A DNA stretch of 64,000 bases, taken from the NCBI GenBank assembly GCA_036013505.1, contig CP107851.1, positions 558,001-622,000 on the forward strand, written 5' to 3'. Numbering within the stretch: position 1 is the stretch's first letter; every line of letters begins with the position of its first letter. The notes beneath the pieces were generated by a model. The model was not told the DNA's origin, searched no databases, and saw nothing but the letters and a program-made list of their open reading frames with translations. This DNA is from Streptomyces sp. NBC_00510 (GTDB taxonomy: Bacteria > Actinomycetota > Actinomycetes > Streptomycetales > Streptomycetaceae). Of the stretch, positions 1,630 through 23,061 are shown one piece after another. A program made the translations under genes and the position numbers.

Positions 1630-3132
1630 ATGCACATGGGCTGGCTTACCTTCGGTTACTTCGTCTCGTACATTCCCTACGCCATGCTGGTGAAGGCCCT
1701 GGCCAGCGGCGTGACTCCGCTGTCGACTGAGCCGGTCAACGGTTTCGTGCTGCTGCCCGCAGCCGTCCTCGGACAGCTCGCGGCGATGACCGTCTTCTTC
1801 GGCCTCACTGGTCGGTGGCGGCATATGCGACGGAGCGGGATCGGCAACGCGCGGATCCCGGTACCGGGCCGGGAGACGCTGGCGGCCGGCTTCTTTACGT
1901 CGCTCATCATCGGCTCCACCACGATGAACTACACCTTTTCCGGTGTCTCGATCCTCTTCATGCTGTTGCTGATGCGGGGAGGAGTCCTGGTCCTCTCCCC
2001 ATTGGTCGACATGACCCGCAAGCGGCGGGTGACGACACCCTCCTGGGTAGCGCTGTGCCTCAGCCTGATAGCGGTTTCGGTGGCTCTCGGCGATGTGCAC
2101 AGCTACCTCCTCCCGCTTGCTGCCGCGCTGAGCGTCCTCATCTACCTCGTCGGCTACCTCGGCCGGTTCGAGATCATGATCCGGGTGGCCAAGAACGGGG
2201 TTGTCGCAACAGACCGCCGCTACTTCGCGGAGGAGCATGTCGCGGCACCCGTATGCCTGGCTCTGCTGCTGGGGGCAGGGGCGCTGGTGGGGCAACCGCA
2301 ACTGCGCGCGGGCTTCACCACATTCCTCGGCACCCCTGCCGCCTTGGCGGCAGCGGGGATAGGAGTGGCATATGAGGTGCTGTTCGTCTTCGCTACGCTG
2401 ATCTATCTCGACCGGCGGGAGTACACCTGGGGTGTGCCGGCATGGGCGTTCGCCAGCCTGATGTCCGGCCTGGTCGCCTCATTCTCGCTCGCGTGGGTGG
2501 CCGGACTCCAAGCTCCGGGGACCTCTCAGCTCATCGCGCTCGCGTTCGGTGTCGGCGCGGCGGGGGCCCTGTCCTATCCATCGGCCTTGGTCTGGTGGCG
2601 GACACGCTGCACCGGCGCGGCATACCGCGTGCTGTTCGTCTGCGGCGGGAACACCTCGCGTTCGCCCATGGCCGAGGTCATCGCGTGGGCCCAGGCCGCG
2701 GAGGCGGGAGTCCCACACCTCTTCCGGTTCTCCAGCGCGGGTGTCGCGACGACGCAGCCTGCGAGCCCGATGACTGAGGACGCCCGGTCCGCGCTCGCTG
2801 AACTCGGTCTGCAGCGGGTGCCGGGCCGGGGGAATCCGCGCCGCCACCGCTCACGCCCGGTCACCCCGGAAGTCTGCCGGGTCAGCTCCGTCATCTACTG
2901 CATGACCCGAGCCCACCGCGACAGGGTGATCGCCATGGCGCCCGAGGCCGAGGGCCGCGCCTTGTGTCTGGACCCGCTCCGTGACATCCCCAATCCGGAG
3001 GGGCAGCCGTTGGACGTGCACCGCAGGTGCGCCCGGCACATCCAGCGGTCCGTGCACGTGCGTCTTCGCGAGCTCCTCGGCGACCCGGGGGGCGCTGCGG
3101 CTCCGCTCTCGGACGAGGGTGATCACGGATGA
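1630..3132 (+). CDS. Polytopic membrane protein fused to a low-molecular-weight protein-tyrosine-phosphatase domain
   Basis: The product is about 500 aa. Residues 1-330 hold roughly nine or ten hydrophobic segments, resembling a small-molecule exporter of the EamA/DMT general type, but I cannot assign the family. From residue 333 a complete LMW-PTP-like domain follows. The P-loop is VLFVCGGNTSRSP with nucleophile Cys338 and Arg344 (C-X5-R), and the general-acid Asp448 sits in LDPLRDIP, at the usual spacing. Known LMW-PTPs dephosphorylate phosphotyrosine, and relatives reduce arsenate or act on small phosphates. Fusion to a transporter suggests that export and dephosphorylation of one compound are coupled (inference). 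It is the first gene of a six-gene operon and overlaps the next by 4 bases (ATGA). The start is uncertain: ATG 1636 is also possible, and no strong ribosome-binding site is seen. Confidence 0.8.
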   Translation: MHMGWLTFGYFVSYIPYAMLVKALASGVTPLSTEPVNGFVLLPAAVLGQLAAMTVFFGLTGRWRHMRRSGIGNARIPVPGRETLAAGFFTSLIIGSTTMNYTFSGVSILFMLLLMRGGVLVLSPLVDMTRKRRVTTPSWVALCLSLIAVSVALGDVHSYLLPLAAALSVLIYLVGYLGRFEIMIRVAKNGVVATDRRYFAEEHVAAPVCLALLLGAGALVGQPQLRAGFTTFLGTPAALAAAGIGVAYEVLFVFATLIYLDRREYTWGVPAWAFASLMSGLVASFSLAWVAGLQAPGTSQLIALAFGVGAAGALSYPSALVWWRTRCTGAAYRVLFVCGGNTSRSPMAEVIAWAQAAEAGVPHLFRFSSAGVATTQPASPMTEDARSALAELGLQRVPGRGNPRRHRSRPVTPEVCRVSSVIYCMTRAHRDRVIAMAPEAEGRALCLDPLRDIPNPEGQPLDVHRRCARHIQRSVHVRLRELLGDPGGAAAPLSDEGDHG

Positions 3133-3809
3133 CGCCCGGGCTCCGCGACGGTCTGTCCCTGATCACCTCCCGCCACTGCACGAGAGCCTTTCTGGATCGG
3201 GTGGTGCCATGGGAGGTCCTGGCGGAGGTACTCCTGGCCGCCGGCCACGCGCCCTCGAGCCGCAACACCCAGATGTGGCAGGTGACGGTGGTGACCGGCA
3301 GCGCCCTGGAGGCGCTGGTGGCTGCCCTGTGCGAGAGCTTCGACCGCGGTGATCCGCCCAGACCGGACTACGCCAACCGGCCGCCGTCGCTTGACGACGC
3401 CGTCGAGCGCCGCGCCGGGCACGCCGCGTCGGGAGTACTGCTCGCCAAGGGCCATGCCGCCCCGGACCACGCCGCCGCTCGGGCCCATCTCCGTGACAAC
3501 CTGCGCTTCTACGGGGCACCGACCGCCCTGGTCTGCCATCTGCCCGGGAACGCGGTGCCGGGCACCTTCCTGGAGATGGGCTTCTTCCTGCAGAACGTCA
3601 TGCTCGGACTGGTGGCGGGGGGCCTCAGCAGCTGCCCGCAGTTCAGTGTCGCCGGCTACGGGGATGTGCTGCGCCTAAAGCTGGGAATCGACACCGACCG
3701 GCTCGTCGTGTGCACTCTGGCAGTCGGGTACGCGGACGAGGCGGCCCCGGTCAATCGGTTCGTTCCGCGGCGGGCCGGTCTGGAGGAGTACGTCCAGTGG
3801 CGCGATTGA
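3129..3809 (+). CDS. Nitroreductase-family FMN oxidoreductase (226 aa)
   Basis: The N-terminus SRHCTRAFLDRVVPWEVLAE, then APSSRNTQMWQ, follows the FMN-binding pattern of the NfsB-type nitroreductase fold. A central helix and LEMGFFLQNVMLGLVAGGLS fit the dimer core, and GYADEAAPVNRFVPRR matches the conserved C-terminal end. Family members bind FMN at a dimer interface and reduce nitro, quinone or enone groups; in natural-product pathways they also oxidise azolines or reduce cyclic dienones. Start ATG 3129 overlaps the stop of the membrane-phosphatase gene (ATGA), which indicates translational coupling. Context points to a redox step in a shikimate-related small-molecule route, with the exact substrate unknown. 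Confidence 0.85.
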   Translation: MTPGLRDGLSLITSRHCTRAFLDRVVPWEVLAEVLLAAGHAPSSRNTQMWQVTVVTGSALEALVAALCESFDRGDPPRPDYANRPPSLDDAVERRAGHAASGVLLAKGHAAPDHAAARAHLRDNLRFYGAPTALVCHLPGNAVPGTFLEMGFFLQNVMLGLVAGGLSSCPQFSVAGYGDVLRLKLGIDTDRLVVCTLAVGYADEAAPVNRFVPRRAGLEEYVQWRD

Positions 3810-5407
3810 CGAGCCGATATGGTGCCGACGTCGGGCGTCGGGCCCGTCTGGTGGCGGTGATCGCCGAACCGGAAGACCTCACCGCGGCTCGCCTGCGTGC
3901 GCTCGCAGGAGTGGCCGACGTGCTGGAGGTCCGCGCCGACCTCATCGGCGATCCCGATCCGCACCGGCTGCGCCGGCATTTTCCCGGACCGCTGACCTAC
4001 AGTTTGCGCTCGCCGCGACACGGCGGCCGCTCCGCCGCCGGCCCGGTCGAGCGGCGCACCCGGCTGCTGCGCGCAGCGGACCACTACGACCTGGTCGATC
4101 TGGAGGCCATGGACGACGTGGCGCCGGAGTTGCTGGCGGACATCGCGGCCCAGCAGCGGCGTATCTCCTGGCACGCGCCCCCAAGCCCGGAGCAACGGTC
4201 CGACCCTGGCCTCCGGTCCGGTCTGCTCCATTCCTCGGCGGCACTGCTCGAGCGGTTCGCCGCGATGGCCGCCGTACCAGCGGCCCAGTACCTCCTCGTG
4301 CCGCAGTCGGGCACGCAGGGAGGATGGGCAGCGCCGCTGCTGCTCACCGGGCTCGGACGTACCGATGTGACGGCGTTCGCGTCCGGCCCGGCCGGCACCT
4401 GGACCCGGGTGCTGGCGCCGTGGCTGGGGGCACCCGTAGTCTTCGGCCGGGCTGGTATCGCCGGGGCGGACGGAATGCCCAGCGTGAGCCAACTCCTCAC
4501 CGACTACGGCCTGCCCGCGCTGCCCCCGCTCAGCGGCCTGTTCGGCATTGCCGGGCGTGCCCCCGGGCGGTCGTTGTCGCCCCGGCTGCACAACGCGGCG
4601 TTGCGGGAGTTGAGGCTGCCCGCGCTCTACCTGCCTTTCCAGGTGGATGTGTTCTCCCGATTCTTGCACCAGGCCATGGACTTCGGGGCGCTGGGCGGAC
4701 CGCCGCTGCGCGGGCTGACCGTGACCGCCCCCCACAAGGAAAGCGCGCTCGAAGCGGCCGACATCGCCGACCCGGAGGCACGGGGGTGCGGGGCGGCAAA
4801 CCTGCTGTGCCTCGACGCCGGGCGCTGGCGCGCGGCCACCACCGACACCTCCGCTGCCCTGCACACCCTCGCCCGGGCCGGAGTCGATCCGAGCGGCCGC
4901 AGGGCCGCCGTCATCGGTTGCGGCGGTGCCGGGCGGGCCGTCGCGTTGGCCCTGTGCCAGGCCGGAGCCCGGGTGACCCTGGTCAACCGAGGGGTTGCGC
5001 TAGGCCGGGCAGCCTCCTCGCGTCTCGGGCTTCCCTATGTGCCGCTGTCCCGGTTCTCCCCGGCGGGGTACACCGTGCTCGCTCATGCCACGCCCCTGGT
5101 GGAACGGGAGCCGTTCCCGGTCTCCACCGTCGACTGGGACGCGGCGGTGCTGGAGATGGCCTACCGCGATCCGCCGACCGCGCTCATGGGCGCCACCCGC
5201 GCCCGAGGACTGATCGGCATCGACGGCTGGGAGGTCCTGTTCATCGAAGTACAGGAGCAGTTCAAGCTGCTGACGGGCCATCCGCTGCCCGAGGCACTGC
5301 CTCTGCACACCGTGTGCTTCGGCCAAGCCGAGCCGCCCGATGCCCACGACCTCACCGAATCAGCGGGACTCGCCCCGACGCACCCTACGAGCAGGGAGGC
5401 ACCATGA
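3797..5407 (+). CDS. Fused type I 3-dehydroquinase-like / shikimate dehydrogenase-like protein (536 aa)
   Basis: Residues 15-240 align with type I dehydroquinate dehydratase: EVRAD at 45-49, VDLE at 100-103, ISWHAP with His126, TRV with Arg204. The Schiff-base lysine position, just before VPQS, is Gln164, and the conserved Gln of the lid (GQ) is Met227, so normal dehydratase chemistry is doubtful. Residues 245-520 are shikimate-dehydrogenase-like: GRSLSPRLHN, TAPHKE with catalytic Lys314, TTDTS with Asp350 in place of NTDG, and the NADP-binding GCGGAG at 374-379. This AroD-AroE order is known as a fusion in plants and some bacteria. I chose GTG 3797 because GGAGGAG lies 8 bases upstream; it overlaps the nitroreductase by 13 bases. 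The divergent sites suggest a secondary-metabolic paralogue, not the housekeeping shikimate enzyme. Confidence 0.85.
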   Translation: MARLTSRYGADVGRRARLVAVIAEPEDLTAARLRALAGVADVLEVRADLIGDPDPHRLRRHFPGPLTYSLRSPRHGGRSAAGPVERRTRLLRAADHYDLVDLEAMDDVAPELLADIAAQQRRISWHAPPSPEQRSDPGLRSGLLHSSAALLERFAAMAAVPAAQYLLVPQSGTQGGWAAPLLLTGLGRTDVTAFASGPAGTWTRVLAPWLGAPVVFGRAGIAGADGMPSVSQLLTDYGLPALPPLSGLFGIAGRAPGRSLSPRLHNAALRELRLPALYLPFQVDVFSRFLHQAMDFGALGGPPLRGLTVTAPHKESALEAADIADPEARGCGAANLLCLDAGRWRAATTDTSAALHTLARAGVDPSGRRAAVIGCGGAGRAVALALCQAGARVTLVNRGVALGRAASSRLGLPYVPLSRFSPAGYTVLAHATPLVEREPFPVSTVDWDAAVLEMAYRDPPTALMGATRARGLIGIDGWEVLFIEVQEQFKLLTGHPLPEALPLHTVCFGQAEPPDAHDLTESAGLAPTHPTSREAP

Positions 5408-5823
5408 CGACCCGATCCGCGTCCTCCGCCGGACCGGCCACACCGCGGCCGCCCGGCACGCCGGACGTCTCGACGCTGCTGGGCGACTGGGTCAACACCG
5501 ACCAGCGCAGTTTGAAGGGCGCCCGCCAGCTGAGCGTGACCTGGCACGAGGGGGGCATGTTCGTCAGGGCCTTCGGCACCGGTGGCCCGCAACCACGCGA
5601 CTGGGGTGAGGAGTCGGCGGTCCTGTACACCACGCCGGACACACCGTCGGTCGCCTCGTCGTTCTCGGCGGTCTACGACTTCGGCTCGCGGCGCACCGTT
5701 GTGGGCGCTTACCACAAGGCGGGCGTCCTGGTGACCACCACATGCACCGTCTTCAGCGATGCCAGCGGGGGTACCGATCACTGGGCCCGCTCGTTCTTCC
5801 ACAGGGCAGAGGCACGGCCATGA
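5404..5823 (+). CDS. Small lipocalin/avidin-like hypothetical protein A (139 aa)
   Basis: After a Pro/Ala-rich leader the protein reads STLLGDWVNTDQRSLKG and then alternates short beta strands to the end, with no signal peptide. The opening LxGxWVNxD and the strand-rich body suggest a small beta-barrel of lipocalin or avidin type. The next gene encodes a protein with the same opening (ATLAGSWVNCDTTAAGI) and similar length, so the two look like tandem duplicates. The gene starts inside the stop of the fused shikimate-type gene (ATGA) after GGGAGG. Roles could be substrate carriage or cyclase-like catalysis; the sequence does not decide. Confidence 0.7.
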   Translation: MTTRSASSAGPATPRPPGTPDVSTLLGDWVNTDQRSLKGARQLSVTWHEGGMFVRAFGTGGPQPRDWGEESAVLYTTPDTPSVASSFSAVYDFGSRRTVVGAYHKAGVLVTTTCTVFSDASGGTDHWARSFFHRAEARP

Positions 5824-6233
5824 CGGCACATGTGGTCGATCCGGCAACGCTGGCAGGCAGCTGGGTCAACTGCGACACCACCGCCGCCGGTATCCACGTG
5901 GTCGATGCCGCGGTCGACCACAGCGGGCTCACGCTGCGGATCACCGAGCGTGGCGGCCCGGAGCCCTCACAAGGCGCGCTCGCATCGACCACGACACCCG
6001 TCACCAGAGCCATCTTGCCCGCCGTCCCGCTGGCCGACGACATCGACGCCACCGAGGCCGTGGCCTTTCTCGCCGAAGGCCCGCTCGACTCCCGGCAGGT
6101 GGTCATCGTCGGCTACCTCAACCGCGGCCTGCTGACCATCGATGTCCATACCGTCCATCCCACCGGAACCCAGATACCCAACACGATGTACCGCGCCCAC
6201 TTCTTCCGCTTCGAAGAGGCCACCCCCATATGA
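5820..6233 (+). CDS. Small lipocalin/avidin-like hypothetical protein B (137 aa)
   Basis: A paralogue of the preceding gene, with the shared opening LAGSWVNCDTTAAGIHVVD and the same overall strand pattern. It ends with TMYRAHFFRFEEATPI, comparable to DHWARSFFHRAEARP in the first copy; the aromatic pair near the end is conserved. It starts by ATGA overlap at 5820 and itself overlaps the monooxygenase gene by ATGA. No export signal is present, so it should be cytosolic. Duplicate barrels next to redox enzymes may form a heterodimer (inference). I do not recognise a named family. Confidence 0.7.
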   Translation: MTAHVVDPATLAGSWVNCDTTAAGIHVVDAAVDHSGLTLRITERGGPEPSQGALASTTTPVTRAILPAVPLADDIDATEAVAFLAEGPLDSRQVVIVGYLNRGLLTIDVHTVHPTGTQIPNTMYRAHFFRFEEATPI

Positions 6234-7456
6234 CCGACGACCTGGGCCACGCCACCCGTCCGGCCCGCAAACTGGCGGTCGGCGACGACCAGGCAGTTCT
6301 CGGTGCCCTGGCGAAGCTCGCCGAAGACAGATTCGCCCCCCGTGCCGATGAGTACGACCGCACGACCGCCTTTCCCACCGAGGACTTCGACGATCTGTTC
6401 TCCGACGGTCTCCTGGGCGCCGCTGTGCCCCGGGGGTACGGCGGACTGGGCTACGGCCCCGCGCAACGCAATACCCTCCCCCTGTGGGAGATGACCACCA
6501 CGCTGGCCAAGGCCGATCTGTCGCTGGCCCGCTGCTGGGAAGGGCACGCCAACTCACTTGTCCTCATCGACGCCCTCGCCACCTCGGAGCAGAAGCGGCG
6601 CTGGTTCACCGGCGTGGTGGAACACGGGGAGAACTGGGCCGCCTGGAGCGGCGAACCCCAGACCCCCAAGCCGGGCGAGAGCGCTCGCTTCGGCACCACG
6701 CTGACCCCCGTCCAGGGCGGCTGGACCCTCCGCGGCAGCAAGGCGTTCGCCACCGGCGCCACCGGCGCACAGTGGGCGATCCTCCTCGTCGATCCGGCCG
6801 GCCCCGGCGGAGCACGCCAAACCTGGGAGGTCCACGGCAGGCTCCTGCTGCTCGCCTGCGACCTGTCGGACCCGACCGTGACCGTGGACACGTCGTGGTG
6901 GGATCCCGTCGGTATGCGCGCGACGGCCAGCCACGTGGTGCGCTTCCACGACACCTTCATACCGCGCGAGCATCTCATCGGCGGCCCCGGCGGCTACTTC
7001 GACGGGCAGTGGCAGACCGCCTTCGTCCCGCAGTACGCGGCCAGCTTCCTCGGCGGCGCCCTGGCCGCATACGAGTACGGGCTCGCGTATGTGAAACGGC
7101 AGGGCAAGAGCGGTGATCCCTATGTGCAGCAGCGGGTGGGCAGCATGGCGGTCAATGTCGAGACCGCCCACCTCTGGTTGCGCCAGGTCGCAGGTCTGTG
7201 GGACGAAGGCAACCTCGACGAGGCCCGGATCGCCGGCAGCAGGGCCTGGCATGTGATCGGGCATCTGGCGGAAGAAACGGTGCACCACGTCATCCGCGCG
7301 TGCGGCGCCCGCAGCCTGATCCGCCCAAGCCCGGTGGAGCGGATCCTGCGCGATCTGACCTTGTACAAGCTCCACGACAACGACGACCACGTGCTGGCCA
7401 CCATCGGCCGGGCCGTCCTCGGTGAGCCATACGACCCGTTCTTCCACAGACTCTGA
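6230..7456 (+). CDS. Acyl-CoA dehydrogenase-fold flavin monooxygenase (group D-like, 408 aa)
   Basis: The overall fold is acyl-CoA dehydrogenase-like: an N-terminal helical part with LAEDRFAPRADEYDR, then GLLGAAVPRGYGGLGYG, a middle beta domain (GWTLRGSKAFATGATGAQ) and a C-terminal helical bundle. The C-terminus carries RPSPVERILRDLTLYKLHDN. Its arginine/aspartate/histidine pattern is typical of DszC- and HpaB-related monooxygenases, and the catalytic glutamate loop of true acyl-CoA dehydrogenases is not apparent. Such enzymes use reduced flavin to hydroxylate aromatic rings, amines or sulfur. Start ATG 6230 overlaps the previous stop (ATGA). This is the last gene of the operon; a free-flavin reductase would be needed, and the nitroreductase in the operon is a possible partner (inference). 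Confidence 0.8.
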   Translation: MTDDLGHATRPARKLAVGDDQAVLGALAKLAEDRFAPRADEYDRTTAFPTEDFDDLFSDGLLGAAVPRGYGGLGYGPAQRNTLPLWEMTTTLAKADLSLARCWEGHANSLVLIDALATSEQKRRWFTGVVEHGENWAAWSGEPQTPKPGESARFGTTLTPVQGGWTLRGSKAFATGATGAQWAILLVDPAGPGGARQTWEVHGRLLLLACDLSDPTVTVDTSWWDPVGMRATASHVVRFHDTFIPREHLIGGPGGYFDGQWQTAFVPQYAASFLGGALAAYEYGLAYVKRQGKSGDPYVQQRVGSMAVNVETAHLWLRQVAGLWDEGNLDEARIAGSRAWHVIGHLAEETVHHVIRACGARSLIRPSPVERILRDLTLYKLHDNDDHVLATIGRAVLGEPYDPFFHRL

Positions 7457-12073: not shown

Positions 12074-14860
12074 TCACTCCTCCAAGGCACCGAGCGCGTC
12101 GCGGAGCGCTGCCCGGGAGGTGATGCCGAGCTTGGGAAAGATCTGGTAAAGGTGCGCTCCGACCGTCCGGTGCGAGAGATAGAGCCGTTCGGCGATCTGC
12201 TTGTTGCTCAGCCCCGATGCCGCCAGGTCCGCGATCTCCCGCTCCTGCGACGTGAGCACCTTCCCGCCCGCTTCGGTCCTCGGCGCAACCCATCCGGCGG
12301 CCCGCAGCTGCTTGGCCGCACGATCCATCCAGGGACCGGCGCGAAGCTCGGCGAAGGCGTCGTGGGCCAGCGTCAACTGCCCTCTGGCCTCCGCGTTCGC
12401 CCTGGCTCGTCGGAGCCGTTCGCCGTGGGCCAGCCGCACCCGGGCCAGATCGAATGGCCATTGCTCGACGTCCGGCAGGGCCAATGCCTCACCGAACAGA
12501 CGCACCGACTCCTCGTCGTCCGTGGCGCACAGAGCGGCCGAAGCGCCGGCCAGGAGCGCGAGCCGCGGGGAGAGCGCGGCGATGTCGTTGTCCCGGATGG
12601 CGCGCACATGAGCGGCCGCTTCCGCTGGGCGGTCGGTGCGGACCGCGGCTTCGACGAGATCCATCATCACCCAGAGGGCGTGCGGCACATGGGAGGCGAA
12701 GGTGCCCGCGGGGCTGATAGCCGTCGCGTGACGATAGGCGCCGGTGAAGTCGCCACGTCCGAGATCGGCCACGGTACGTATGTGCCGGGCGTAGTGCAGT
12801 GCCGTCCCGACGCCCCGCGGTGCGGCCCATTGGGAGATGCGACCCGTGAGGAGGACGACCGTCGCGTCCTCCCCGCGGGGCGCGGCGACGACAGCCCTGC
12901 AATACCAGAAGTACCAGGTGAAGAACCGGTATCCGGAGTCCTCGCAGAGCTGGGCTCCTTCCTCGGCCAGTTCGACGCACTCGTCCCACCTGCCGGTCAG
13001 GTAGTCGTCCAGGCACAGGTGCATCAAGGCGCCGAGATGCCGGCGCACCGGGCCGCCGTCCCGTCCCTGGCGGACGACCTTCCACGAGGGCTCACGGAGG
13101 TCGGACAACCGGTCGAGGTAGAGCGCCGCGGTGCCGACCCTGACGATGCGGCCGGGGTCGGTCTCTTCGGGAAGTCCGCCGAGGATGCCCTCCAGCTGGT
13201 CCAGCGCGGCCGCTCCCGAACGCGCCGGGTCGGAGAAGGTCTTGCCGGCCACGGACAGCAGTGCGGGCGGCTCCGGGCGCAACCGGGAGAGCGCGGTGTA
13301 GAAGGGGTCCCACAACTCCGCTCGGCCGCTGAAGAAACACAGGAGCAGCAGCAGGTGCACGGCGTCGACGACGGCGTTGTCCTCGGCGTCGTACTGGTGG
13401 GTGCCGGACTCGATGGCGCCCACCAGCAGGCGGTGAGCCGTGTCGATGTCCCCGTCACCGTTGATGACCAGATAGACGGCGGCAGCGGCGGAGCGAAGGG
13501 ACCCGGCCAGGTCCGGGTCGGCGCGTCGGGCGTCCTCGAGCAGCTCCGAGACGCCGCGCAGCTCCCCCGTCGCGTCGGCGCCGATGTAAGCGGCCTCGGC
13601 CAGGCGGCGCGCCCGGTCCGACCCGTGGGGACTCAAGTCGGCCGCCCGAATCAGCGCCGCAACCGCCCCCAGGGCGTCACCGCGCACCGTGATGCGGTGG
13701 GCGGCCCGCTCCAGCAGGGTGGCGACCTGCTCGTCCGGCTCGACGGACGCTTCTCCGAGATGCCAGGCCCGGCGCTCGGGCTGATGCGCCAGAGCCTGGG
13801 CCAGGGCCCGGTGCGCCGCACGGCGCTCGGCGCTGGAGCAGGCGTCGACGACGGCCGAGCGGATCAGGGGGTGCCGGAAGACGAGCCGCCGGGTGCCCTC
13901 ATCGACGGTGACCAGCTGGTCCTGCTCGGCCGGGGCGAGATCTTCGAGGTCGGCGTCGCAACCGTCCTGCCGCGCCGCCGCGTGCAGGACCCCGAGATCG
14001 CCGGTTCCGTCCATCGTGGCGAGCAGCAGCAGGCGGCGGGTGGCAGCCGGCAGGCCTGAGACACGGGAGAGGAACAGCGCTTGGAGCCGCTGGCTCAGCG
14101 GCAGGACCGCGGGAAGGTTCTCCAGCGCCATGCGCTGCTGCCCGCTCAGCACCGTGGGCAGTTCGAGCAGGGCCAGCGGGTTCCCTTCGGCCGCGGACAG
14201 CAGCCGACGCCGCACTCGTTCGGCAAGGTTCGGGAATCGCGCGTCGAGCAGCGCCCGGGACGACGTTTCGTCCAGCGGCGGCACCTCGTACTCGGGCAGT
14301 CCACCGCGGTTGAAGAAGGTCTCGCTTCCTTGGCGCACGGCGCCGAGGAAGCCGATCCGGCTGCCGCCGAGCCTGCGGGCGACGAAGCCGAACACGGCGG
14401 CGCTTGCGCGGTCCACCCACTGCAGGTCGTCGATGACGAGCAGCAGGGAGTCAGGTGCGGCCACCTGGCGAAGGAGCATGAGGGTCGCACTGGACACGAC
14501 GAGTCGGTTCGGCGACGCTCCGCTGCCGAGGCCCAGCGCGACACGCAGGGCCTCCTGATGGGTGCTGTCCAGATCGCCGAACGTCTCGGAGAGAGGGAAG
14601 AGGAGTTGGTTCAGGCTGGAGTAGCTCACGTCGGCTTCGAACTCGACGCCGGCCGCACGCAGGACCCGCGTCCCGGTCGCGGACGCCGCCTCCGCCACGG
14701 CGTTGAGCAGAACCGTCTTGCCCACCCCCGCCTGCCCCGACAGCAGGAGCGCCCCGCCACGGTCGGTGGCGCCAAGGAACGCGCGTATGCGATCCAGTTC
14801 CTTGGCACGCCCCACCGGAGCGCCAGCGGCTCCGTCATCAAAGGGGTCGCCGTAGCCCAC
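12074..14860 (-). CDS. LAL-type LuxR family regulator with N-terminal ATPase (928 aa)
   Basis: Residues 15-200 contain an AAA/STAND ATPase: Walker A GQAGVGKT at 42-49 and Walker B LLLVIDDLQWVD. A long helical, TPR-like middle follows. The last 65 residues form a LuxR helix-turn-helix: LTSQEREIADLAASGLSNKQ then IAERLYLSHRTVGAHLYQ. This is the standard layout of large ATP-binding LuxR regulators, which activate secondary-metabolic or catabolic genes. GTG 14860 is preceded by GGGAG at suitable spacing. It converges on the SDR-like gene; the target is not evident, although the hydrolases and the TetR gene are its nearest neighbours. Confidence 0.93.
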   Translation of the reverse strand: MGYGDPFDDGAAGAPVGRAKELDRIRAFLGATDRGGALLLSGQAGVGKTVLLNAVAEAASATGTRVLRAAGVEFEADVSYSSLNQLLFPLSETFGDLDSTHQEALRVALGLGSGASPNRLVVSSATLMLLRQVAAPDSLLLVIDDLQWVDRASAAVFGFVARRLGGSRIGFLGAVRQGSETFFNRGGLPEYEVPPLDETSSRALLDARFPNLAERVRRRLLSAAEGNPLALLELPTVLSGQQRMALENLPAVLPLSQRLQALFLSRVSGLPAATRRLLLLATMDGTGDLGVLHAAARQDGCDADLEDLAPAEQDQLVTVDEGTRRLVFRHPLIRSAVVDACSSAERRAAHRALAQALAHQPERRAWHLGEASVEPDEQVATLLERAAHRITVRGDALGAVAALIRAADLSPHGSDRARRLAEAAYIGADATGELRGVSELLEDARRADPDLAGSLRSAAAAVYLVINGDGDIDTAHRLLVGAIESGTHQYDAEDNAVVDAVHLLLLLCFFSGRAELWDPFYTALSRLRPEPPALLSVAGKTFSDPARSGAAALDQLEGILGGLPEETDPGRIVRVGTAALYLDRLSDLREPSWKVVRQGRDGGPVRRHLGALMHLCLDDYLTGRWDECVELAEEGAQLCEDSGYRFFTWYFWYCRAVVAAPRGEDATVVLLTGRISQWAAPRGVGTALHYARHIRTVADLGRGDFTGAYRHATAISPAGTFASHVPHALWVMMDLVEAAVRTDRPAEAAAHVRAIRDNDIAALSPRLALLAGASAALCATDDEESVRLFGEALALPDVEQWPFDLARVRLAHGERLRRARANAEARGQLTLAHDAFAELRAGPWMDRAAKQLRAAGWVAPRTEAGGKVLTSQEREIADLAASGLSNKQIAERLYLSHRTVGAHLYQIFPKLGITSRAALRDALGALEE

Positions 14861-17465: not shown

Positions 17466-18286
17466 ACGTCGGCAGCGTTGCCGCCGAACACACGTCCGCG
17501 TTCCGCGGCGGAAAGCCCCTCGAGCAGGGCTTCCACAGCTGACTTCCAGGGCGCCGCTCCCCCGCCGAGCTCCGCCAACGGCCAGTCGGAGCCATAGAGC
17601 AGACGCTCAGGACCGAAGGATCCCAGGGCGATCGTCACCGGGGCGGCGAGATCGGCTGCCCGCCACGATCCGGGGGCGAGGCCCGACGCGAGTCCCGAGA
17701 CCTTCGCGACGACGTTCGGTTGCCGCGCGAGATCCCGCAGCCGCGACGCCCACGTGCTCCTGTCCTGCCCGGGCACGGGCGGACCGCCGAGGTGATCGAG
17801 CACGAAGCGGAGTCCGCCGTGGCGCGCGGCCAAGCGGGTCGCCTGAGGAAGCTGCCACTCACGCACGACGAGGTCGAAGCAGAGGTCCTCACGCTCGAGT
17901 ACGGCGAGGCCCGCGCTGATCTCCTCGCGCATCATCCACTCCGGGTCCGGGTCGATGTGGGCCAGATGCCGCACCCCGACGACGGGGACAGCGGCGTCCT
18001 TGCGGATCCGGTCGAGCTGAGGTCCGACCTCCGCCGTGAGGTCGACCCACGCGACGAGGCCGGCGATGGCGGGAGAGTCCAGCTTGGCGAGCCGGATGCT
18101 CTCCTCGAGGCTGTTGCTCGACTGCACGACCACGGCACCGTCGAGTCCGGTCGAGGCCAGCATCCCACTCAGATCGCAGGCGCCGAAGTCGCGGGCGATC
18201 GGCGCCATGGTCTCCACGTCGATCCATTCCTGCGGGTCCACGGCCCGGTCCCACAGGTGCACATGGGCGTCGATGCCGGCGTTCAT
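17450..18286 (-). CDS. Amidohydrolase-family sugar lactonase (278 aa)
   Basis: The protein opens IDAHVHLWDRAVDPQEWID (HxH metal motif) and contains VGVRHLAHIDPDPEWM, RFVLDHLGGPP, VAKVSGL and LYGSDWPLA. This is the amidohydrolase-2 pattern of L-fucono/L-rhamnono-1,5-lactonases and 2-pyrone-4,6-dicarboxylate lactonases. In this operon, opening a 6-deoxyaldono-lactone to the free acid is the likely role. ATG 18286 overlaps the stop of the mutarotase gene (ATGA). It is the last gene of the importer operon and converges on the GntR gene. Confidence 0.88.
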   Translation of the reverse strand: MNAGIDAHVHLWDRAVDPQEWIDVETMAPIARDFGACDLSGMLASTGLDGAVVVQSSNSLEESIRLAKLDSPAIAGLVAWVDLTAEVGPQLDRIRKDAAVPVVGVRHLAHIDPDPEWMMREEISAGLAVLEREDLCFDLVVREWQLPQATRLAARHGGLRFVLDHLGGPPVPGQDRSTWASRLRDLARQPNVVAKVSGLASGLAPGSWRAADLAAPVTIALGSFGPERLLYGSDWPLAELGGGAAPWKSAVEALLEGLSAAERGRVFGGNAADVYSLS

Positions 18287-18621
18287 GCGAGGTGCCACAC
18301 TTCCTCGACAGGCTGCCACAGCGCCCCGGGATCACGCTCCTCGGCGATCCTCACCTGGCACGGGTCGGTGTGCGTCCACCATTCCTGCGAAACCGGGTCG
18401 TCGGCGATCCGTCGCATGTCCGCCTCGTGGTCCTCGCCGACGTACTCGTAGTAGGCGAAGAGGATGTCGCCGAAGATGAAGATGCTGTAGTTGCGTACGT
18501 TGCATTCGGTGAGCTTTCGCTCGACGCCCGGCCACACGGCACGGTGCAGCGTCAGGTACTCCTCGCGCTTGTCGGGCCGCACACCCACGACGAAGGCCCT
18601 GCGCTCGGGTCGACGGGTCAT
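18283..18621 (-). CDS. L-rhamnose mutarotase-family protein (112 aa)
   Basis: The sequence KREEYLTLHRAVWPGVERKL, then NVRNYSIFIFGDILFAYYEY and WWTHTDPCQ, follows the RhaM/DUF718 family, which interconverts alpha and beta anomers of L-rhamnose and related 6-deoxysugars. Length is normal for the family. It overlaps both neighbours by 4 bases, so it is translationally coupled to the dehydratase and lactonase. A mutarotase beside a lactonase fits supply of the right anomer to a sugar dehydrogenase. Confidence 0.9.
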   Translation of the reverse strand: MTRRPERRAFVVGVRPDKREEYLTLHRAVWPGVERKLTECNVRNYSIFIFGDILFAYYEYVGEDHEADMRRIADDPVSQEWWTHTDPCQVRIAEERDPGALWQPVEEVWHLA

Positions 18622-19799
18622 CGGGTTCGGCCTCCGCGGTGCGTCGGGTCGTCGATCACGTCGGGTTCGGCCACCAGCCGCAGGGCGGCGCGTTCGGGCC
18701 TGATGTGCGGGCCGGTCGCCGCGGGCCGGGGCGGAGCGGCGTCGGCCGGTGACATCCGGGACTCGTCGACGACGATCCCGATGCCCGGGCGATCGCCCAG
18801 GACGATGCCTCCGTCGTCGAACTGCTGGTCGACATCGAGACCGACGGGGAAGTGAAGGTCCTGGACTTCGAAGGTCAGCAGGTTCGGTACGGCGGCGGCG
18901 GCGTGCGCCACCGGGTTCGCGTTGTACGCGACGGGACTCACCGGCAGGTCGTGGGCGAGCGCGAGCGTTGCGACGCGGAGGAAATGGGTGATCCCCCACA
19001 CGTTGCCGACCTGCACGATGTCCACCGCGTTGGCGTCGAGCAGAGGGCGGTACTGCTCCAGCCCGGTCAGGTTCTCGCCGCTGGCGATCGCCGCGCGTAC
19101 CTTCCCGCGCAGCGAGGCCATGCCGGCCGCATCCCATCGGCGCAGCGGTTCCTCCACCCAAGTGAGGTCCATGCGCTCTTCGATGGCCGCGACATACCGG
19201 GCCGCCTGGGCGTGGTTCCACGACTCGTTGGCGTCGAACATGAGCGCCGGCCGACGGGAGTTGCGGCTGAGGACGTCGCGCATGATCTCCAGCCGGGGCA
19301 GGTCGCGGTCGAGGTCGCGGCCGCCCTTGAGCTTGCCGGCCTTGAACCCGCGGTCCGCGAACCGGCCGTAGAGGTCGACGAGTTCGTCCTCGGTCAGGCC
19401 GTACTCGAGACCGGACGCATAGCCGGGGACGAAGCGCTCGCGGGCCCCGAGGGTCCGCCAGAGCGGCTCGTCGGCGGCCTTGGCCTTGATGTCCCAGAGG
19501 GCCATGTCGACCGCCCCGATGGTGCCGAAGGTGGATCCTGAGTGACCGGCCTTGAACACCCAGTCGAGCATGCGGTCGTAGAGCGCCATGACCGAGCGCG
19601 GGTCGTCGCCCTCGATCGCGGGGAAGACACGGGCGATGTCGGCGTGGGCCCCGAGGCCCACTCCCTCGATTCCGCTGTCGGTCTCGATGATGAGGACGGG
19701 GACCGGCGTGGCGTGGCCGGGCTGGACACCGTTGACGTCCCCGGTGATTCTGCCCCAGTCGTGAACGGTGCTCAGACTGCGGTACCCGGTGATCTTCAT
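18618..19799 (-). CDS. Enolase-superfamily sugar-acid dehydratase (393 aa)
   Basis: The N-terminal capping domain is followed by a barrel with a KxK base motif (GFKAGKLKGG) and three metal ligands: the Asp of LMFDANESW, the Glu of WVEEPL and the Glu of ASGENLTG. These are the hallmarks of the mandelate racemase/muconate lactonizing group, which includes fuconate, rhamnonate and galactarate dehydratases. The Asp of the usual Asp-His dyad is present (VDIVQVGNV), but the segment where the His is expected reads PVSPVAYN. The predicted reaction is loss of water from an aldonate to give a 2-keto-3-deoxy acid. AAGGAGA precedes ATG 19799. The C-terminus carries about 50 extra, Pro/Arg-rich residues. 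Confidence 0.85.
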   Translation of the reverse strand: MKITGYRSLSTVHDWGRITGDVNGVQPGHATPVPVLIIETDSGIEGVGLGAHADIARVFPAIEGDDPRSVMALYDRMLDWVFKAGHSGSTFGTIGAVDMALWDIKAKAADEPLWRTLGARERFVPGYASGLEYGLTEDELVDLYGRFADRGFKAGKLKGGRDLDRDLPRLEIMRDVLSRNSRRPALMFDANESWNHAQAARYVAAIEERMDLTWVEEPLRRWDAAGMASLRGKVRAAIASGENLTGLEQYRPLLDANAVDIVQVGNVWGITHFLRVATLALAHDLPVSPVAYNANPVAHAAAAVPNLLTFEVQDLHFPVGLDVDQQFDDGGIVLGDRPGIGIVVDESRMSPADAAPPRPAATGPHIRPERAALRLVAEPDVIDDPTHRGGRTR

Positions 19800-19830
19800 C
19801 GGCGGTGGTTCTCCTTGCAAGTGCGAGTGG

Positions 19831-20739
19831 TCATTCCTTGGTTCCTCCAGCTGTCATGCCTGCGACCAGGAATCGCTGGGAAAACAGGAAGACGACCAGG
19901 ACGGGCAGGATCGACACGATCGTCCCCAGCGCCAAGGTGGGCAGCTGGACGGAGTCGGATCCCGCGGAGCTGGGATTGAAAGCCGGGGTCGACGCCAGGA
20001 GCGAGGTGAGCCCGACCTGGATCGGATAGCCGTCGCTCGAGGGCAGCATCACGAACGGGAGGAAGAAGTTGTTCCAGTTCTGTACGAAGCTGAAGAACGC
20101 CACCAGGGCGACGATCGGGGCGGCCAGCGGAAGGGCGACCCGGGTGAAGACCTGGAAGCCGTTGCAGCCGTCGATGCGCGCGGCCGCGAGGATGTCCCGA
20201 GGGATGCTGGTCGAGAAGTAGATGTAGGTGAGATAGACGCCGAACGGGAAGAACGACATGGGCAGGATCACCGACAGCGGGCTCCCGATCAGCCCGACGC
20301 CGTTCAGCTCGAGGAAGATGGGCAGCACCAGTGCGGTGTTGGGGATCAGCATGACGACGAGCGTCAGCACGAGCAGCGCCTGCCGAAGCCTGAACTCCGT
20401 GAGCGCGAGCGCGTAGCCGGCGGGGATGCTCACGAGGAGCGTGATCACCAGAGCGCCGATCGCGTACAGCGCGGAGTTCCCGATCCAGGTCGTCACCGCA
20501 CCGTCCTGGAAGTCGAACAGCTGGTGCCAGTTGGCGACGAAGTCCGACCACGACCCGAGCGAGAACGGGTCGGCGACGACGAGCGTCTTCGAGGACTTCG
20601 TGACCGCGAGGAGCAGCCAGACGATCGGGACGGCGAAGAACAGGACGAAGACGACGAGCAGGACGCCGATGATGGACCGCCCGCTCCACCCGCTGAGGCT
20701 CGGCCGACGGCGTTCGGCAGAGAGTGCTGCCATGGTCAT
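19831..20739 (-). CDS. Carbohydrate ABC importer permease, MalG type (302 aa)
   Basis: Six transmembrane segments are visible, with the cytoplasmic EAA-like loop DILAAARIDGCNGFQVFTRV that contacts the ATPase. Proteins of this type pair with a MalF-like permease and a sugar-binding lipoprotein. ATG 20739 overlaps the stop of the MalF-type gene (ATGA). No ATPase gene lies in the cluster; in Streptomyces a shared MsiK-type ATPase often energises such importers (established for several systems, inferred here). Confidence 0.93.
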   Translation of the reverse strand: MTMAALSAERRRPSLSGWSGRSIIGVLLVVFVLFFAVPIVWLLLAVTKSSKTLVVADPFSLGSWSDFVANWHQLFDFQDGAVTTWIGNSALYAIGALVITLLVSIPAGYALALTEFRLRQALLVLTLVVMLIPNTALVLPIFLELNGVGLIGSPLSVILPMSFFPFGVYLTYIYFSTSIPRDILAAARIDGCNGFQVFTRVALPLAAPIVALVAFFSFVQNWNNFFLPFVMLPSSDGYPIQVGLTSLLASTPAFNPSSAGSDSVQLPTLALGTIVSILPVLVVFLFSQRFLVAGMTAGGTKE

Positions 20740-21689
20740 TCCTTCTCGAAGAGGCCGCCGCGGGTCACGAACACCCAGGACAGCAGGAGCGCGACGACCA
20801 GCAGGATCAGCGAGATCGCGGCCGCGCCGTTGAAGTCGTTCTGCTGGAAGGCGTACTGGTAGGCCAGCTGGTTGAGCGAGTAGTCGTTGGGCACCACCGC
20901 GTTGCTGGCCTGGCTGAGCAACTGCGGTTCGACGAACAGCTGGGTGCCGGCCGCGAGCGACATGACGCCCATGTACGCGACCCACTTGCGCAGCATCGGC
21001 AGCTGGATCCGAAGCGCGATCTGGACGGCGTTCGCACCGTCGATGCGGGCGGCCTCGATCACTTCGGTGCTGATGTTGTTGAGGGCGCCGTACATGATGA
21101 GGATCCAGCCGCCGGCTCCGGTCCAGAACGCGATGATCGCGAAGATCGCCGGAAGGTGGCCGGGTTGGATCACCTGCACGAAGCTCTCGAACCCCATCGC
21201 CGTGAGCAGACCGCTGACCGGGCTCGCGGTCGGATCGAGGACGAAGAGCCACAACAGGACGCTGGACGCGCCCGCCAGCGCGCCGGGCAGGTAGTAGACG
21301 AAGCGCAGGGTCGTGCTGACCCACCGCACACCGACGGCGTGGACCACCAGCGCCAGGCCGACGACGAAGAGGACCAGCCCGAGGAGCCAGATGAGGAGAT
21401 AGGTGGTCACGTGGAACACGGCCGGCCAGAACCGGAAGTCGCCGACGACCTTGGTGAAGTTGTCGAAGCCTGCGAATCCACCGTCGGCGTTCGTGAAGGC
21501 CAGGACTACTGCGTAGAGCGAGGGGACGATCCCGAACACGACGGCGAGCAACGCGTAGGGCGAGACGAAGAGATAGCCGATCGGACTACGAGCGAAGGCG
21601 CGGCCGGCCGGCCGGCCGCTGCCCCGGCCCGACCGCCGACGCCCCGAGGCGTCAACGGCCGGCCGGCCACTCGGAGGAGCCAGGGTCAT
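20736..21689 (-). CDS. Carbohydrate ABC importer permease, MalF type (317 aa)
   Basis: A basic, Gly/Arg-rich cytoplasmic leader of about 35 residues precedes six membrane segments. The EAA loop reads EVIEAARIDGANAVQIALRI. It begins one base after the stop of the binding-protein gene and overlaps the MalG-type gene, so the three transporter genes form one translational unit. The family imports oligo- or monosaccharides. Confidence 0.93.
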   Translation of the reverse strand: MTLAPPSGRPAVDASGRRRSGRGSGRPAGRAFARSPIGYLFVSPYALLAVVFGIVPSLYAVVLAFTNADGGFAGFDNFTKVVGDFRFWPAVFHVTTYLLIWLLGLVLFVVGLALVVHAVGVRWVSTTLRFVYYLPGALAGASSVLLWLFVLDPTASPVSGLLTAMGFESFVQVIQPGHLPAIFAIIAFWTGAGGWILIMYGALNNISTEVIEAARIDGANAVQIALRIQLPMLRKWVAYMGVMSLAAGTQLFVEPQLLSQASNAVVPNDYSLNQLAYQYAFQQNDFNGAAAISLILLVVALLLSWVFVTRGGLFEKE

Positions 21690-21690
21690 T

Positions 21691-23061
21691 TCAGTTCACC
21701 TTGTATCCGTTGACCTCGGCCTGGTTCTCGATGGCCGTCTGCCAGGTCGGCAGCAGGTCCACGATCGACTTGCCGCCCGTGATCCCCGGGGTCATCGTCT
21801 TCGCCCATATCGCCTCCTGGCTGAACATGGGGTAACCCCAGCCGTCCCAGACCTGCGACGCCGCGGTCACCACCGGCTGCAGCGGGGTGGCGTAGTACTT
21901 GCTCGCCTCCTGCTTGGCGATCCACTTCTGTGCGGCGGGCGCGTACGCCGGGTAACCCGGTGCGACATTCACCTGGTACTCGTCGGCCGTGGTGACGAAC
22001 CGGACGAACTTCTCGGCGGCCTTCAGGTTCTTCGAATGGCTGGAGACGAACCAGGTTCCGCCACCAACGTTGCCCGTCACGGCCGCGCTCTCGCCCTTCC
22101 ACGGCAACGGCGCGGCGACACCGAGCTGCCCGGCCGGCACCTTGAGCGACTGGGGGTTGTTGAAGATCGCGCCGGCGTACCAGGCCGGACCCGGCATCAT
22201 CAGCACCTTGCCCGAGTACTTCTTCAGGAACTCGGGCGTGAACACGCTGACCACCGGCACGGTCCCGTTGTCGCGGAGGACGTCGAGCATCGAGGCCGCC
22301 CGCTTGCACTCGGTCGAGTCGGTCTTCACGGTGAGGGACTTGGGGCCGGGCACGTCATTGGCCTGGCACTTGCTCCCCCACATGAACACCTCGGGCGTCC
22401 AGGCGTCCCCGGCCGTCCCGACGATGTAGCCGGGGTGCTCCTTGGCGACCTTCTCCCCGAGCGCCTGGTACTCCTCCCACGTGGTCGGGAGGGCGTAGCC
22501 GAACTGATCCAGCAGGGACTTGTTGTACCAGAGCACCGCCTGGGCGAGGTCGTTGCGCAGGCAGTACACGCGGCCGTCCACCGTGCAGGGGTTGAGCGAG
22601 CCCTCGGTGAAGTTGCTGAGCGTGTCCTTCGGGACGAGGCCCTTGTCCAGCACGGCCGCGAACGCCTGCTTGCCGGCGCTCTTCTGGCTGGCCCATGCCG
22701 CGTCGTTGTTCTGGCTGGAGAAGACGACATCGGGCCAGCCACTGCCGGCGCGGTCGAAGAGCTGCATCTTCGTCCGGAAGGAGTTGGACCCGTTGGCCGA
22801 CCCGTCATAGGTGACGACCTTGATCTTGGTGTCCGGGTTCGCCGTCTGGAACGCCTTCGCGGCAGCCTGCCGGTCCGCGTCCACCCAGACGGTGATCGTC
22901 GAGGAGGCCTCCTGCTTGGCTTCGGGAAAGCCGTACGACCCGTTCGCCGAGCTGCCTTGGCCGCCGCAACCAGCGAGGGTCAGGAGTGCCGTTGCGGCGC
23001 ACATTACGGCGACGGTCGACGCCTTGCGGCGCGAACGCACCAAAGTGTGGATTCCGGCCAT
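21691..23061 (-). CDS. Sugar-binding lipoprotein of the ABC importer (456 aa)
   Basis: The signal sequence ends in a lipobox, LLTLAGCGG, so the protein should be lipid-anchored outside the membrane. The mature part follows the extracellular solute-binding family 1 fold: ITVWVDADRQAAAKAFQTAN near the start, VVFSSQNNDAAW, LWYNKSLLDQFGYALPTTW, and GNVGGGTWFVSSHSKNLKAA. AAGGA lies 7 bases before ATG 23061. It is the first gene of a six-gene unit (importer, dehydratase, mutarotase, lactonase), and its promoter contains operator site 2 inside the -35/-10 spacer. Confidence 0.93.
   Translation of the reverse strand: MAGIHTLVRSRRKASTVAVMCAATALLTLAGCGGQGSSANGSYGFPEAKQEASSTITVWVDADRQAAAKAFQTANPDTKIKVVTYDGSANGSNSFRTKMQLFDRAGSGWPDVVFSSQNNDAAWASQKSAGKQAFAAVLDKGLVPKDTLSNFTEGSLNPCTVDGRVYCLRNDLAQAVLWYNKSLLDQFGYALPTTWEEYQALGEKVAKEHPGYIVGTAGDAWTPEVFMWGSKCQANDVPGPKSLTVKTDSTECKRAASMLDVLRDNGTVPVVSVFTPEFLKKYSGKVLMMPGPAWYAGAIFNNPQSLKVPAGQLGVAAPLPWKGESAAVTGNVGGGTWFVSSHSKNLKAAEKFVRFVTTADEYQVNVAPGYPAYAPAAQKWIAKQEASKYYATPLQPVVTAASQVWDGWGYPMFSQEAIWAKTMTPGITGGKSIVDLLPTWQTAIENQAEVNGYKVN

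What the first reader, a model, noticed from the sequence alone, without database searches (positions are those of the whole stretch)
1630..7456. Six-gene translationally coupled operon: candidate undescribed shikimate-related biosynthetic pathway
Seen: all six genes overlap by 4 to 13 bases. They encode a membrane protein-phosphatase fusion, a nitroreductase, an AroD-AroE-like fusion, two small beta-rich paralogues and a group D-like flavin monooxygenase. Known: the enzyme families occur in natural-product pathways. Inference: a cyclohexene or aromatic precursor is tailored by reduction and hydroxylation, perhaps carried as a phosphorylated form and dephosphorylated at export. I know of no described cluster with this set.
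Basis: partly seen in the sequence, partly recalled or inferred. Interest (0 to 1): 0.8.

Follow-up and report, generated by a model that had tools for sequence, protein, structure and literature searches.

The report
Cross-phylum operon with repurposed shikimate enzyme
These six overlapping genes are the Streptomyces-family form of a gene set that recurs in Acidobacteriota and other phyla around a shikimate-pathway enzyme whose first half has lost its catalytic lysine; the set likely makes and exports a small ring-shaped molecule that may handle copper or iron, and its product is unknown.

Summary
In detail: six same-strand genes (1630-7456) overlap by 4, 13, 4, 4 and 4 bases. The AroD-AroE-like protein (g3) belongs to one clade (31 tree rows, SH-aLRT 99) spanning Actinomycetota, Acidobacteriota, SAR324, Myxococcota and Rhodothermota; 26 of those 31 loci also hold g6. 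Relatives outside the clade keep the DHQ-dehydratase Lys, His and Gln (18 of 18); inside it the Schiff-base lysine is gone in 27 of 31 and an SDH substrate-orienting threonine in 31 of 31. So g3 looks like a neofunctionalised AroDE. g6 resembles group D (DszC-type) flavin monooxygenases, g2 NfnB-type nitroreductases, g4/g5 avidin-like barrels; g1 is a DMT-fold transporter fused to a YwlE-like phosphatase. In several other lineages the core sits beside copper or iron genes: MnxG-like oxidases, SCO1, CopC-CopD, PepSY_TM, ferric-siderophore-type ABC transporters. Best reading: a small shikimate-derived, exported metabolite, perhaps a metal ligand or redox mediator. The product is unknown, and the window's own operon has none of these metal-gene families next to it. 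The phospho-carrier idea is not supported. Interest is moderate to high as an abundant orphan pathway.

The parts
1630..3132 (+). g1: ten-helix DMT-type transporter (aa 1-327) fused to a low-molecular-weight (YwlE-like) phosphatase; the start may be 1636
2629..3054 (+). g1 phosphatase domain (aa 334-475): P-loop C338-GGNTS-R344; N455 where YwlE has Asp118
   Evidence: meaning of PX5 Thr and of the Asp from PMC8001253 (passages)
3129..3809 (+). g2: NfnB-type FMN nitroreductase family protein (flavin reductase or substrate reductase, inferred)
   Evidence: 8.1e-20; 7dp1 9.5e-38; NfnB protein 2wzv 7.4e-32
3797..5407 (+). g3: AroD-AroE-like fusion (GTG start). AroD half has Leu166 for the Schiff-base Lys and no Gln in the lid; SDH half keeps K314 and D350, has L336 (Thr407 of Arabidopsis) and E484 (Gln578)
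5404..5823 (+). g4: avidin-like beta-barrel protein (predicted), paralogue of g5
5820..6233 (+). g5: second member of the same family
   Evidence: one-ORF g4-g5 tandems in L020, L053 and L064
6230..7456 (+). g6: acyl-CoA-dehydrogenase-fold, DszC/SfnB-type flavin monooxygenase (by sequence); the ACAD motif IYEGT is replaced by LHDND
   Evidence: HD in 26 of 26 rows; 1711 relatives at E <= 1e-60 among 7992 scored candidates

Best explanation
Six overlapping genes form an operon that likely makes and exports a small shikimate-derived ring metabolite: a repurposed AroD-AroE-like protein (g3) is predicted to bind a 3-dehydroshikimate-like acid and oxidise or aromatise it with NADP(H), a group D-type flavoprotein (g6) is predicted to hydroxylate it, and a DMT-fold transporter fused to a phosphatase-like domain (g1) would carry it out. 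g2 would supply reduced flavin or reduce an intermediate. The barrels g4 and g5 would hold the reactive intermediate or product. The exported compound is, by inference from gene neighbours in other lineages, a copper- or iron-binding phenol or enol, or a redox mediator for secreted copper oxidases. Shown: gene overlaps, cross-phylum recurrence, the single g3 clade, loss of the AroD lysine and of the SDH orienting threonine, loss of the ACAD catalytic-Glu motif in g6, and linkage to metal genes in several lineages. Inferred: that the six genes are one transcript, substrate, product, direction of transport, and metal role.
For: Recurrence: all six genes matched around g3 in 6 named Streptomycetaceae loci (L013, L015-L018, L020), and g1, g3, g4-type barrels and g6 in Acidobacteriota L023, L028 and L043 and Solirubrobacterales L064. 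Clade of 31 rows, SH-aLRT 99. Active site: DQD Lys lost in 27 of 31 clade rows and kept in 18 of 18 outside; Thr407 lost in 31 of 31, against Thr in 17 and Ser in 1 of 18 outside; S336, K385, Q582 and the NADP-type NR pair kept in all rows compared. Outside the clade, L030 lies among his and trp genes and L031 beside an anthranilate synthase gene. Other copies for primary metabolism exist: two further Shikimate_dh_N genes and one type II DHQase. Plant DQD/SDHs that make gallate from 3-DHS carry substitutions at the equivalents of N406, T407 and T422 (PMC7752791); 407 is changed in every clade row here. g6: SfnB and DszC models at 94 and 71 bits, ACAD motif replaced. Exporter logic: in the 13 Pseudonocardiaceae genomes whose g6 is at least 83% identical to that of L056 no g1 was found, but an MFS gene lies beside g6 in 12. 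Metal linkage: MnxG-like oxidases in L022, L025, L039, L047; SCO1 in L021, L022, L028, L047; a CopD gene within about 1 kb of g6 in 3 of the other 6 Pseudonocardiaceae genomes, which have 2-7 CopD genes each; PepSY_TM within about 3.3 kb of g6 in 8 of the 13 genomes, which have 1-3 matches each; FecCD in 5 of the 13 loci.
Against: None of my 20 neighbour representatives lies in the first 20 kb of the window or in L012, L013, L014, L016 or L017, nor in the 18 kb upstream of the window, so the metal role of this copy is extrapolated. The linked oxidases differ between lineages (MCO, DyP, P450, luciferase-like, PhyH) and could be tailoring enzymes. The SDH catalytic Asp423 is Asn in 7 of 31 clade rows and Glu, Gly or a gap in 4 more, so simple SDH-like redox may not be common to the whole clade. 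I found no homologue with a known product. The FecB-like protein scores under its curated cut-off (242.8 against 320), and the MnxG-like proteins score far under theirs. The nitroreductase is not found or gives only a partial match in some Streptomyces (L012, L014, L016, L069, L070) and was not found in the Acidobacteriota loci, so it is not essential to the core.
Confidence: 0.4

Rival explanations
1. It is a catabolic or detoxification operon: it takes up and oxidises an aromatic, nitro or sulfur compound, as DszC, SfnB, SsuD and NfnB relatives do.
For: g6 scores best with SfnB, then a desulfinase and DszC; the luciferase-like neighbour tested (L025) scores best with alkanesulfonate monooxygenase and SfnG; g2 matches NfnB; the oligopeptide-type ABC genes near L036 could be importers; an IclR gene lies next to the window operon, with a relative in L053.
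Against: An AroDE-like protein and a barrel pair have no known place in such pathways (recalled, not searched); barrels and the phosphatase-fused DMT protein co-travel with g3 and g6 across phyla; MFS genes, P450s and LuxR-type regulators are frequent neighbours.
Confidence: 0.2
2. It makes a C7 cyclitol, aminoshikimate-like or enone antibiotic; the metal genes are incidental and the phosphatase domain acts in self-protection.
For: An AroE-like protein with a flavin monooxygenase and exporter, patchy distribution (7 of 394 Streptomycetaceae genomes), variable P450 and methyltransferase neighbours.
Against: No aminotransferase, kinase or DHQ-synthase-like gene is among the six; the phosphatase P-loop is of pArg type and the window copy lacks the catalytic Asp; metal genes recur in several lineages.
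Confidence: 0.2
3. It makes a redox cofactor or prosthetic group for the linked copper oxidases rather than a released metabolite.
For: MnxG-like oxidases, MCO, SCO1, DyP and GlxA-like genes in different loci; strong sequence conservation of g6 across phyla.
Against: Streptomyces and Actinacidiphila loci without any of these oxidases nearby; a transporter gene at many loci; rarity within families.
Confidence: 0.1

Closest known systems
Bifunctional DHQ dehydratase-shikimate dehydrogenase (plant DQD/SDH, bacterial AroDE; 2gpt)
   Same: Same two-domain order and fold family; several shikimate-binding residues and the NADP-type motif kept.
   Different: Schiff-base Lys and lid Gln lost; Thr407 and Gln578 replaced in the window; the host has separate AroE-like and type II DHQase genes.
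Gallate-forming plant DQD/SDH (EcDQD/SDH2 and 3, VvSDH3 and 4)
   Same: SDH orienting network altered at position 407, NADP-type motif kept.
   Different: The Eucalyptus enzymes keep DQD activity, here the DQD lysine is lost; no activity has been measured for g3.
Group D flavin monooxygenases (DszC, SfnB-like, XiaF, KijD3)
   Same: ACAD-type sequence without the ACAD Glu motif; DszC also has LHD there.
   Different: Far below the NCBIfam cut-offs (94 against 431 bits for SfnB, 71 against 850 for DszC); its own large, conserved family.
Drug/metabolite transporters (triose-phosphate translocator, LicB, SLC35B1)
   Different: Fused at the C terminus to an LMW phosphatase-like domain.
YwlE/PtpB protein-arginine phosphatases
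   Same: P-loop with Thr at PX5 in 14 of 16 g1 proteins that keep the domain.
   Different: Window copy has Asn for the general-acid Asp and Ser for the second P-loop Cys; tethered to a transporter.
Siderophore and chalkophore operons
   Same: In Pseudonocardia L038 and L059: g3, g6, MFS, ferric-type binding protein, two FecCD-cluster permeases and an ABC ATPase in a row on one strand.
   Different: I saw no NRPS, NIS synthetase or RiPP gene among the neighbours scanned; metal binding untested; the window copy lacks uptake genes of these families.

Membership tests
Type I 3-dehydroquinate dehydratase (AroD) | Schiff-base lysine | tested here: not met
   Leu166 in the window; lost in 27 of 31 clade rows, kept in 18 of 18 outside
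Type I 3-dehydroquinate dehydratase (AroD) | Substrate-binding Glu, Arg and Arg plus catalytic His | tested here: met
   E44, R46, R71, R204 and H126 present in the window protein; the His varies in some clade rows; the Glu86 position is Asp here and in most outside rows
Shikimate dehydrogenase | Lys-Asp catalytic dyad | tested here: met
   K314 and D350 in the window; Lys in 31 of 31 clade rows, Asp in only 20 of 31
Shikimate dehydrogenase | Substrate-orienting Thr407 and Gln578 | tested here: not met
   Leu336 and Glu484 in the window
Shikimate dehydrogenase | Activity on shikimate or 3-DHS | not testable with these tools
   Needs an enzyme assay
Gallate-forming DQD/SDH | Oxidation of 3-DHS to gallate | not testable with these tools
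   Only a parallel at position 407
Acyl-CoA dehydrogenase | Catalytic Glu (xYEGT motif; role recalled) | tested here: not met
   LHDND aligned to IYEGT of 1ukw; HD at that place in 26 of 26 g6 rows
Group D flavin monooxygenase | ACAD fold with reduced flavin supplied by a separate reductase | tested here: inconclusive
   Family and motif by sequence; the reductase partner is a guess (g2), and g2 was not found at many loci
LMW phosphatase / YwlE-type arginine phosphatase | CX5R P-loop with Thr at PX5 | tested here: met
   C338-GGNTS-R344
LMW phosphatase / YwlE-type arginine phosphatase | General-acid Asp | tested here: not met
   Asn455 in the window; Asp in 7 of 16 g1 proteins with the domain
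DMT transporter superfamily | Ten-helix DMT fold | tested here: met
Avidin family | Avidin-type barrel fold | tested here: inconclusive
Avidin family | Biotin-binding residues | not tested
   Not examined
Metallophore biosynthesis and uptake operon | Biosynthetic genes beside cognate metal uptake genes | tested here: inconclusive
   Seen in part of Pseudonocardiaceae (FecCD 5 of 13 loci, PepSY_TM 8 of 13 genomes); not seen at the window
Metallophore biosynthesis and uptake operon | Product binds metal; expression metal-regulated | not testable with these tools
   Needs culture work

The most novel reading that the evidence does not exclude
A pathway unlike the known NRPS, NIS and RiPP metallophore routes turns a shikimate-pathway intermediate into a small copper or iron ligand with one Schiff-base-dead AroDE and one group D flavoprotein as its core; barrel proteins shield it, a phosphatase-tethered DMT pump releases it, and the pathway has spread from Acidobacteriota and SAR324 to Streptomyces.
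Probability: 0.27. Interest if true: 0.85.

Novelty: new variant of a known kind. Interest (0 to 1): 0.6.

Why it matters
g6 alone has 1711 relatives at E <= 1e-60 among the 7992 candidates scored, yet no product for the set turned up in the papers searched. If the reading is right, a widespread gene set makes an unknown shikimate-derived metabolite, the AroDE scaffold has gained a new role in bacteria as it has in plants, and two genes (g3, g6) give a precise probe for finding such clusters. If metal binding is confirmed, it would be a metallophore class that miners for NRPS, NIS or RiPP genes would miss.

Tried and rejected
Housekeeping shikimate enzyme: rejected, since the genome has two other AroE-like genes and a type II DHQase and the AroD site is broken. 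Phosphorylated carrier released at export: no kinase among the six genes, P-loop of pArg type and Asn for the catalytic Asp. Chance neighbourhood: rejected by recurrence. Plasmid-borne cassette: no plasmid record covers at least 80% of g3 at one place. Tropone route by a TdaE-like enzyme: considered after reading passages of PMC8283759, which say that residues conserved in TdaE are lacking in classical ACADs and group D enzymes; g6 was not compared with TdaE, so this stays open.

Led nowhere: paper searches returned no paper; 49, 57 and 78 one paper each, judged off topic from title and abstract start; one listed 15 of 340 papers, none of which held the term 'shikimate dehydrogenase-like'. Searches gave the five papers opened. 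What I saw of papers: PMC7752791, passages and one section; PMC4892741, PMC8001253, PMC8283759 and PMC5481743, passages; all others, listings only. An Acidobacteriota-wide distribution could not be measured.

Limits: gene maps come from my own codon-score caller. Five of the 53 loci (L057, L058, L060, L061, L062) were not in the alignment and tree because their g3 stretch was short or not called. g3 genes were first grouped by me as 30 'linked' and 19 'other'; L037, listed there as 'other', falls in the linked clade in the tree, and I count by the tree. Families not listed in the fold tables are not excluded. The neighbour table uses 20 representatives chosen after seeing the loci and only tblastn, so it is descriptive, and related loci are not independent. 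L024 showed a partial PepSY_TM match by tblastn that the Pfam search did not confirm; I count 8, not 9.
Full report
What is there. The window is bases 558001-622000 of a single-contig 10.15-Mb genome. One of the 34 other genomes searched as its genus is the Actinacidiphila oryziradicis genome that also gave L017, judged by matching contig positions. Six same-strand genes run from 1630 to 7456 with overlaps of 4, 13, 4, 4 and 4 bases. Upstream lie genes read by eye as a sugar-type ABC operon; downstream on the other strand are an IclR regulator and two alpha/beta hydrolases. Of these neighbours only an IclR relative was seen at another clade locus (L053, about 8 kb from g3), besides members of a broad short-chain dehydrogenase-type cluster, so the operon appears to stand alone.

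g3 is a repurposed AroDE. The scan gave 53 loci; 48 of them plus the window and an Arabidopsis DQD/SDH stretch were aligned and put in a 50-row tree. There, 31 rows including the window form one group with SH-aLRT 99 (quick search, no bootstrap; Arabidopsis and L047 are long branches). Outside it, 18 of 18 bacterial rows keep the Schiff-base Lys, the His, the lid Gln and Gln578; Thr407 is Thr in 17 and Ser in 1. Of these, L030 lies among his and trp genes and L031 beside an anthranilate synthase gene. Inside the group the Lys is lost in 27 of 31, the lid Gln in 31, Thr407 in 31 and Gln578 in 23, while S336, K385, Q582 and the NADP-type NR pair stay in 31. Asp423 is Asp in 20, Asn in 7, Glu in 2, Gly in 1 and a gap in 1. 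So a shikimate-like acid can probably still bind, but DHQ dehydration by Schiff base is excluded for most members, and the hydride geometry is probably changed. [quoted passage not shown] This is an analogy, not a test.

Spread. Of the 31 clade loci 26 contain g6 within the fetched stretch (in L053 it lies about 9 kb from g3 on the other strand). Of the five without it, L037 and L039 end within about 100 bases of g3, L047 and L048 are short, and L032 has 10 kb of flank and no g6. None of 19 loci outside the clade (L058 included) showed any of the five partner genes or of 20 neighbour representatives at the thresholds used. The set is patchy: g3 in 7 of 394 Streptomycetaceae genomes and 2 of 35 of the genus, g6 in 3 of 394 of the class, the window's own genome counted in each; and g6 in 19 of 390 Pseudonocardiaceae. 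The g6 family is nonetheless large: 1711 proteins at E <= 1e-60 among 7992 scored candidates.

Neighbours. In SAR324 L022, Amycolatopsis anabasis L025, deltaproteobacterial L039 and Rhodothermaceae L047 an MnxG-like multicopper oxidase lies in the locus (795, 130, 1064 and 144 bits against a 3100-bit cut-off, so relatives and not MnxG itself). SCO1 proteins occur in L021, L022, L028 and L047. Of the 19 Pseudonocardiaceae genomes, six have a g6 62-67% identical to that of L056; in three of these six a CopD gene lies within about 1 kb of g6, the six having 2 to 7 CopD genes each. In the other 13 (g6 at least 83% identical) a PepSY_TM gene lies within about 3.3 kb of g6 in 8, FecCD in 5 loci, a ChrB-like regulator in 10 and the MFS gene in 12. 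In Streptomyces L015, L018 and L019 a P450, a DyP peroxidase and a GlxA-like protein follow (the GlxA-like protein scores 155 against a cut-off of 800). Luciferase-like genes occur in L021, L022, L023 and L028, PhyH genes in L021 and L022, glycosyltransferase genes in L021 and L028. The window has none of the 20 representatives in its first 20 kb or in the 18 kb upstream.

Mechanism. I commit to a small exported shikimate-derived ring compound, with g3 as the entry enzyme, g6 as hydroxylase, g2 as accessory reductase, g4/g5 as carriers, and g1 as exporter whose phosphatase-like domain is regulatory or vestigial. The presence of an MFS gene where g1 is missing in Pseudonocardiaceae supports the exporter role. 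Metal binding or redox mediation is the least certain step. Rivals are a catabolic operon, a cyclitol-type antibiotic and a cofactor pathway.

Novelty. Nothing in the listings of the cluster-oriented paper searches looked like a description of this set, in a library that lacks most subscription journals; MIBiG could not be queried. I rate it a new variant of a known kind: a metabolite operon built from known enzyme families, one of which has lost its defining catalytic residue.

Noticed in passing
window 51020-55276 (-): 1418-aa protein with many WD40 repeats next to a 296-aa gene at 50116-51006; function not pursued.
   Followed up: partly
window 12074-14860 (-): 928-aa LuxR-family regulator with an AAA_16 domain, near the operon but on the other strand.
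   Followed up: no
window 18283-23061 (-): Enolase-family (mandelate racemase/muconate lactonizing) gene at 18618-19799 next to genes that read by eye like a sugar ABC transporter; possible sugar-acid catabolic cluster.
   Followed up: no
L012, L071, L014, L016, L069, L070: In several Streptomyces the nitroreductase gene was not found or gives only a partial, about 50% match, and L012/L071 (one genome) also show no g4 or g5: the operon appears to be losing these parts.
   Followed up: partly
L053:12350-18822: Five consecutive genes of the P450 cluster downstream of g3 in a Streptosporangiales MAG.
   Followed up: no
L021:15330-16964: Apparent fusion of a family 2 glycosyltransferase with a phytanoyl-CoA dioxygenase domain next to an Acidobacteriota version of the operon.
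   Followed up: no
L043:13534-14565: g1 homologue without the phosphatase domain close to a contig end; a separate transporter or an assembly artefact.
   Followed up: no
L111 (G1005:C17): g6 found as two overlapping pieces in different frames, either a frameshift or a draft-assembly error.
   Followed up: no
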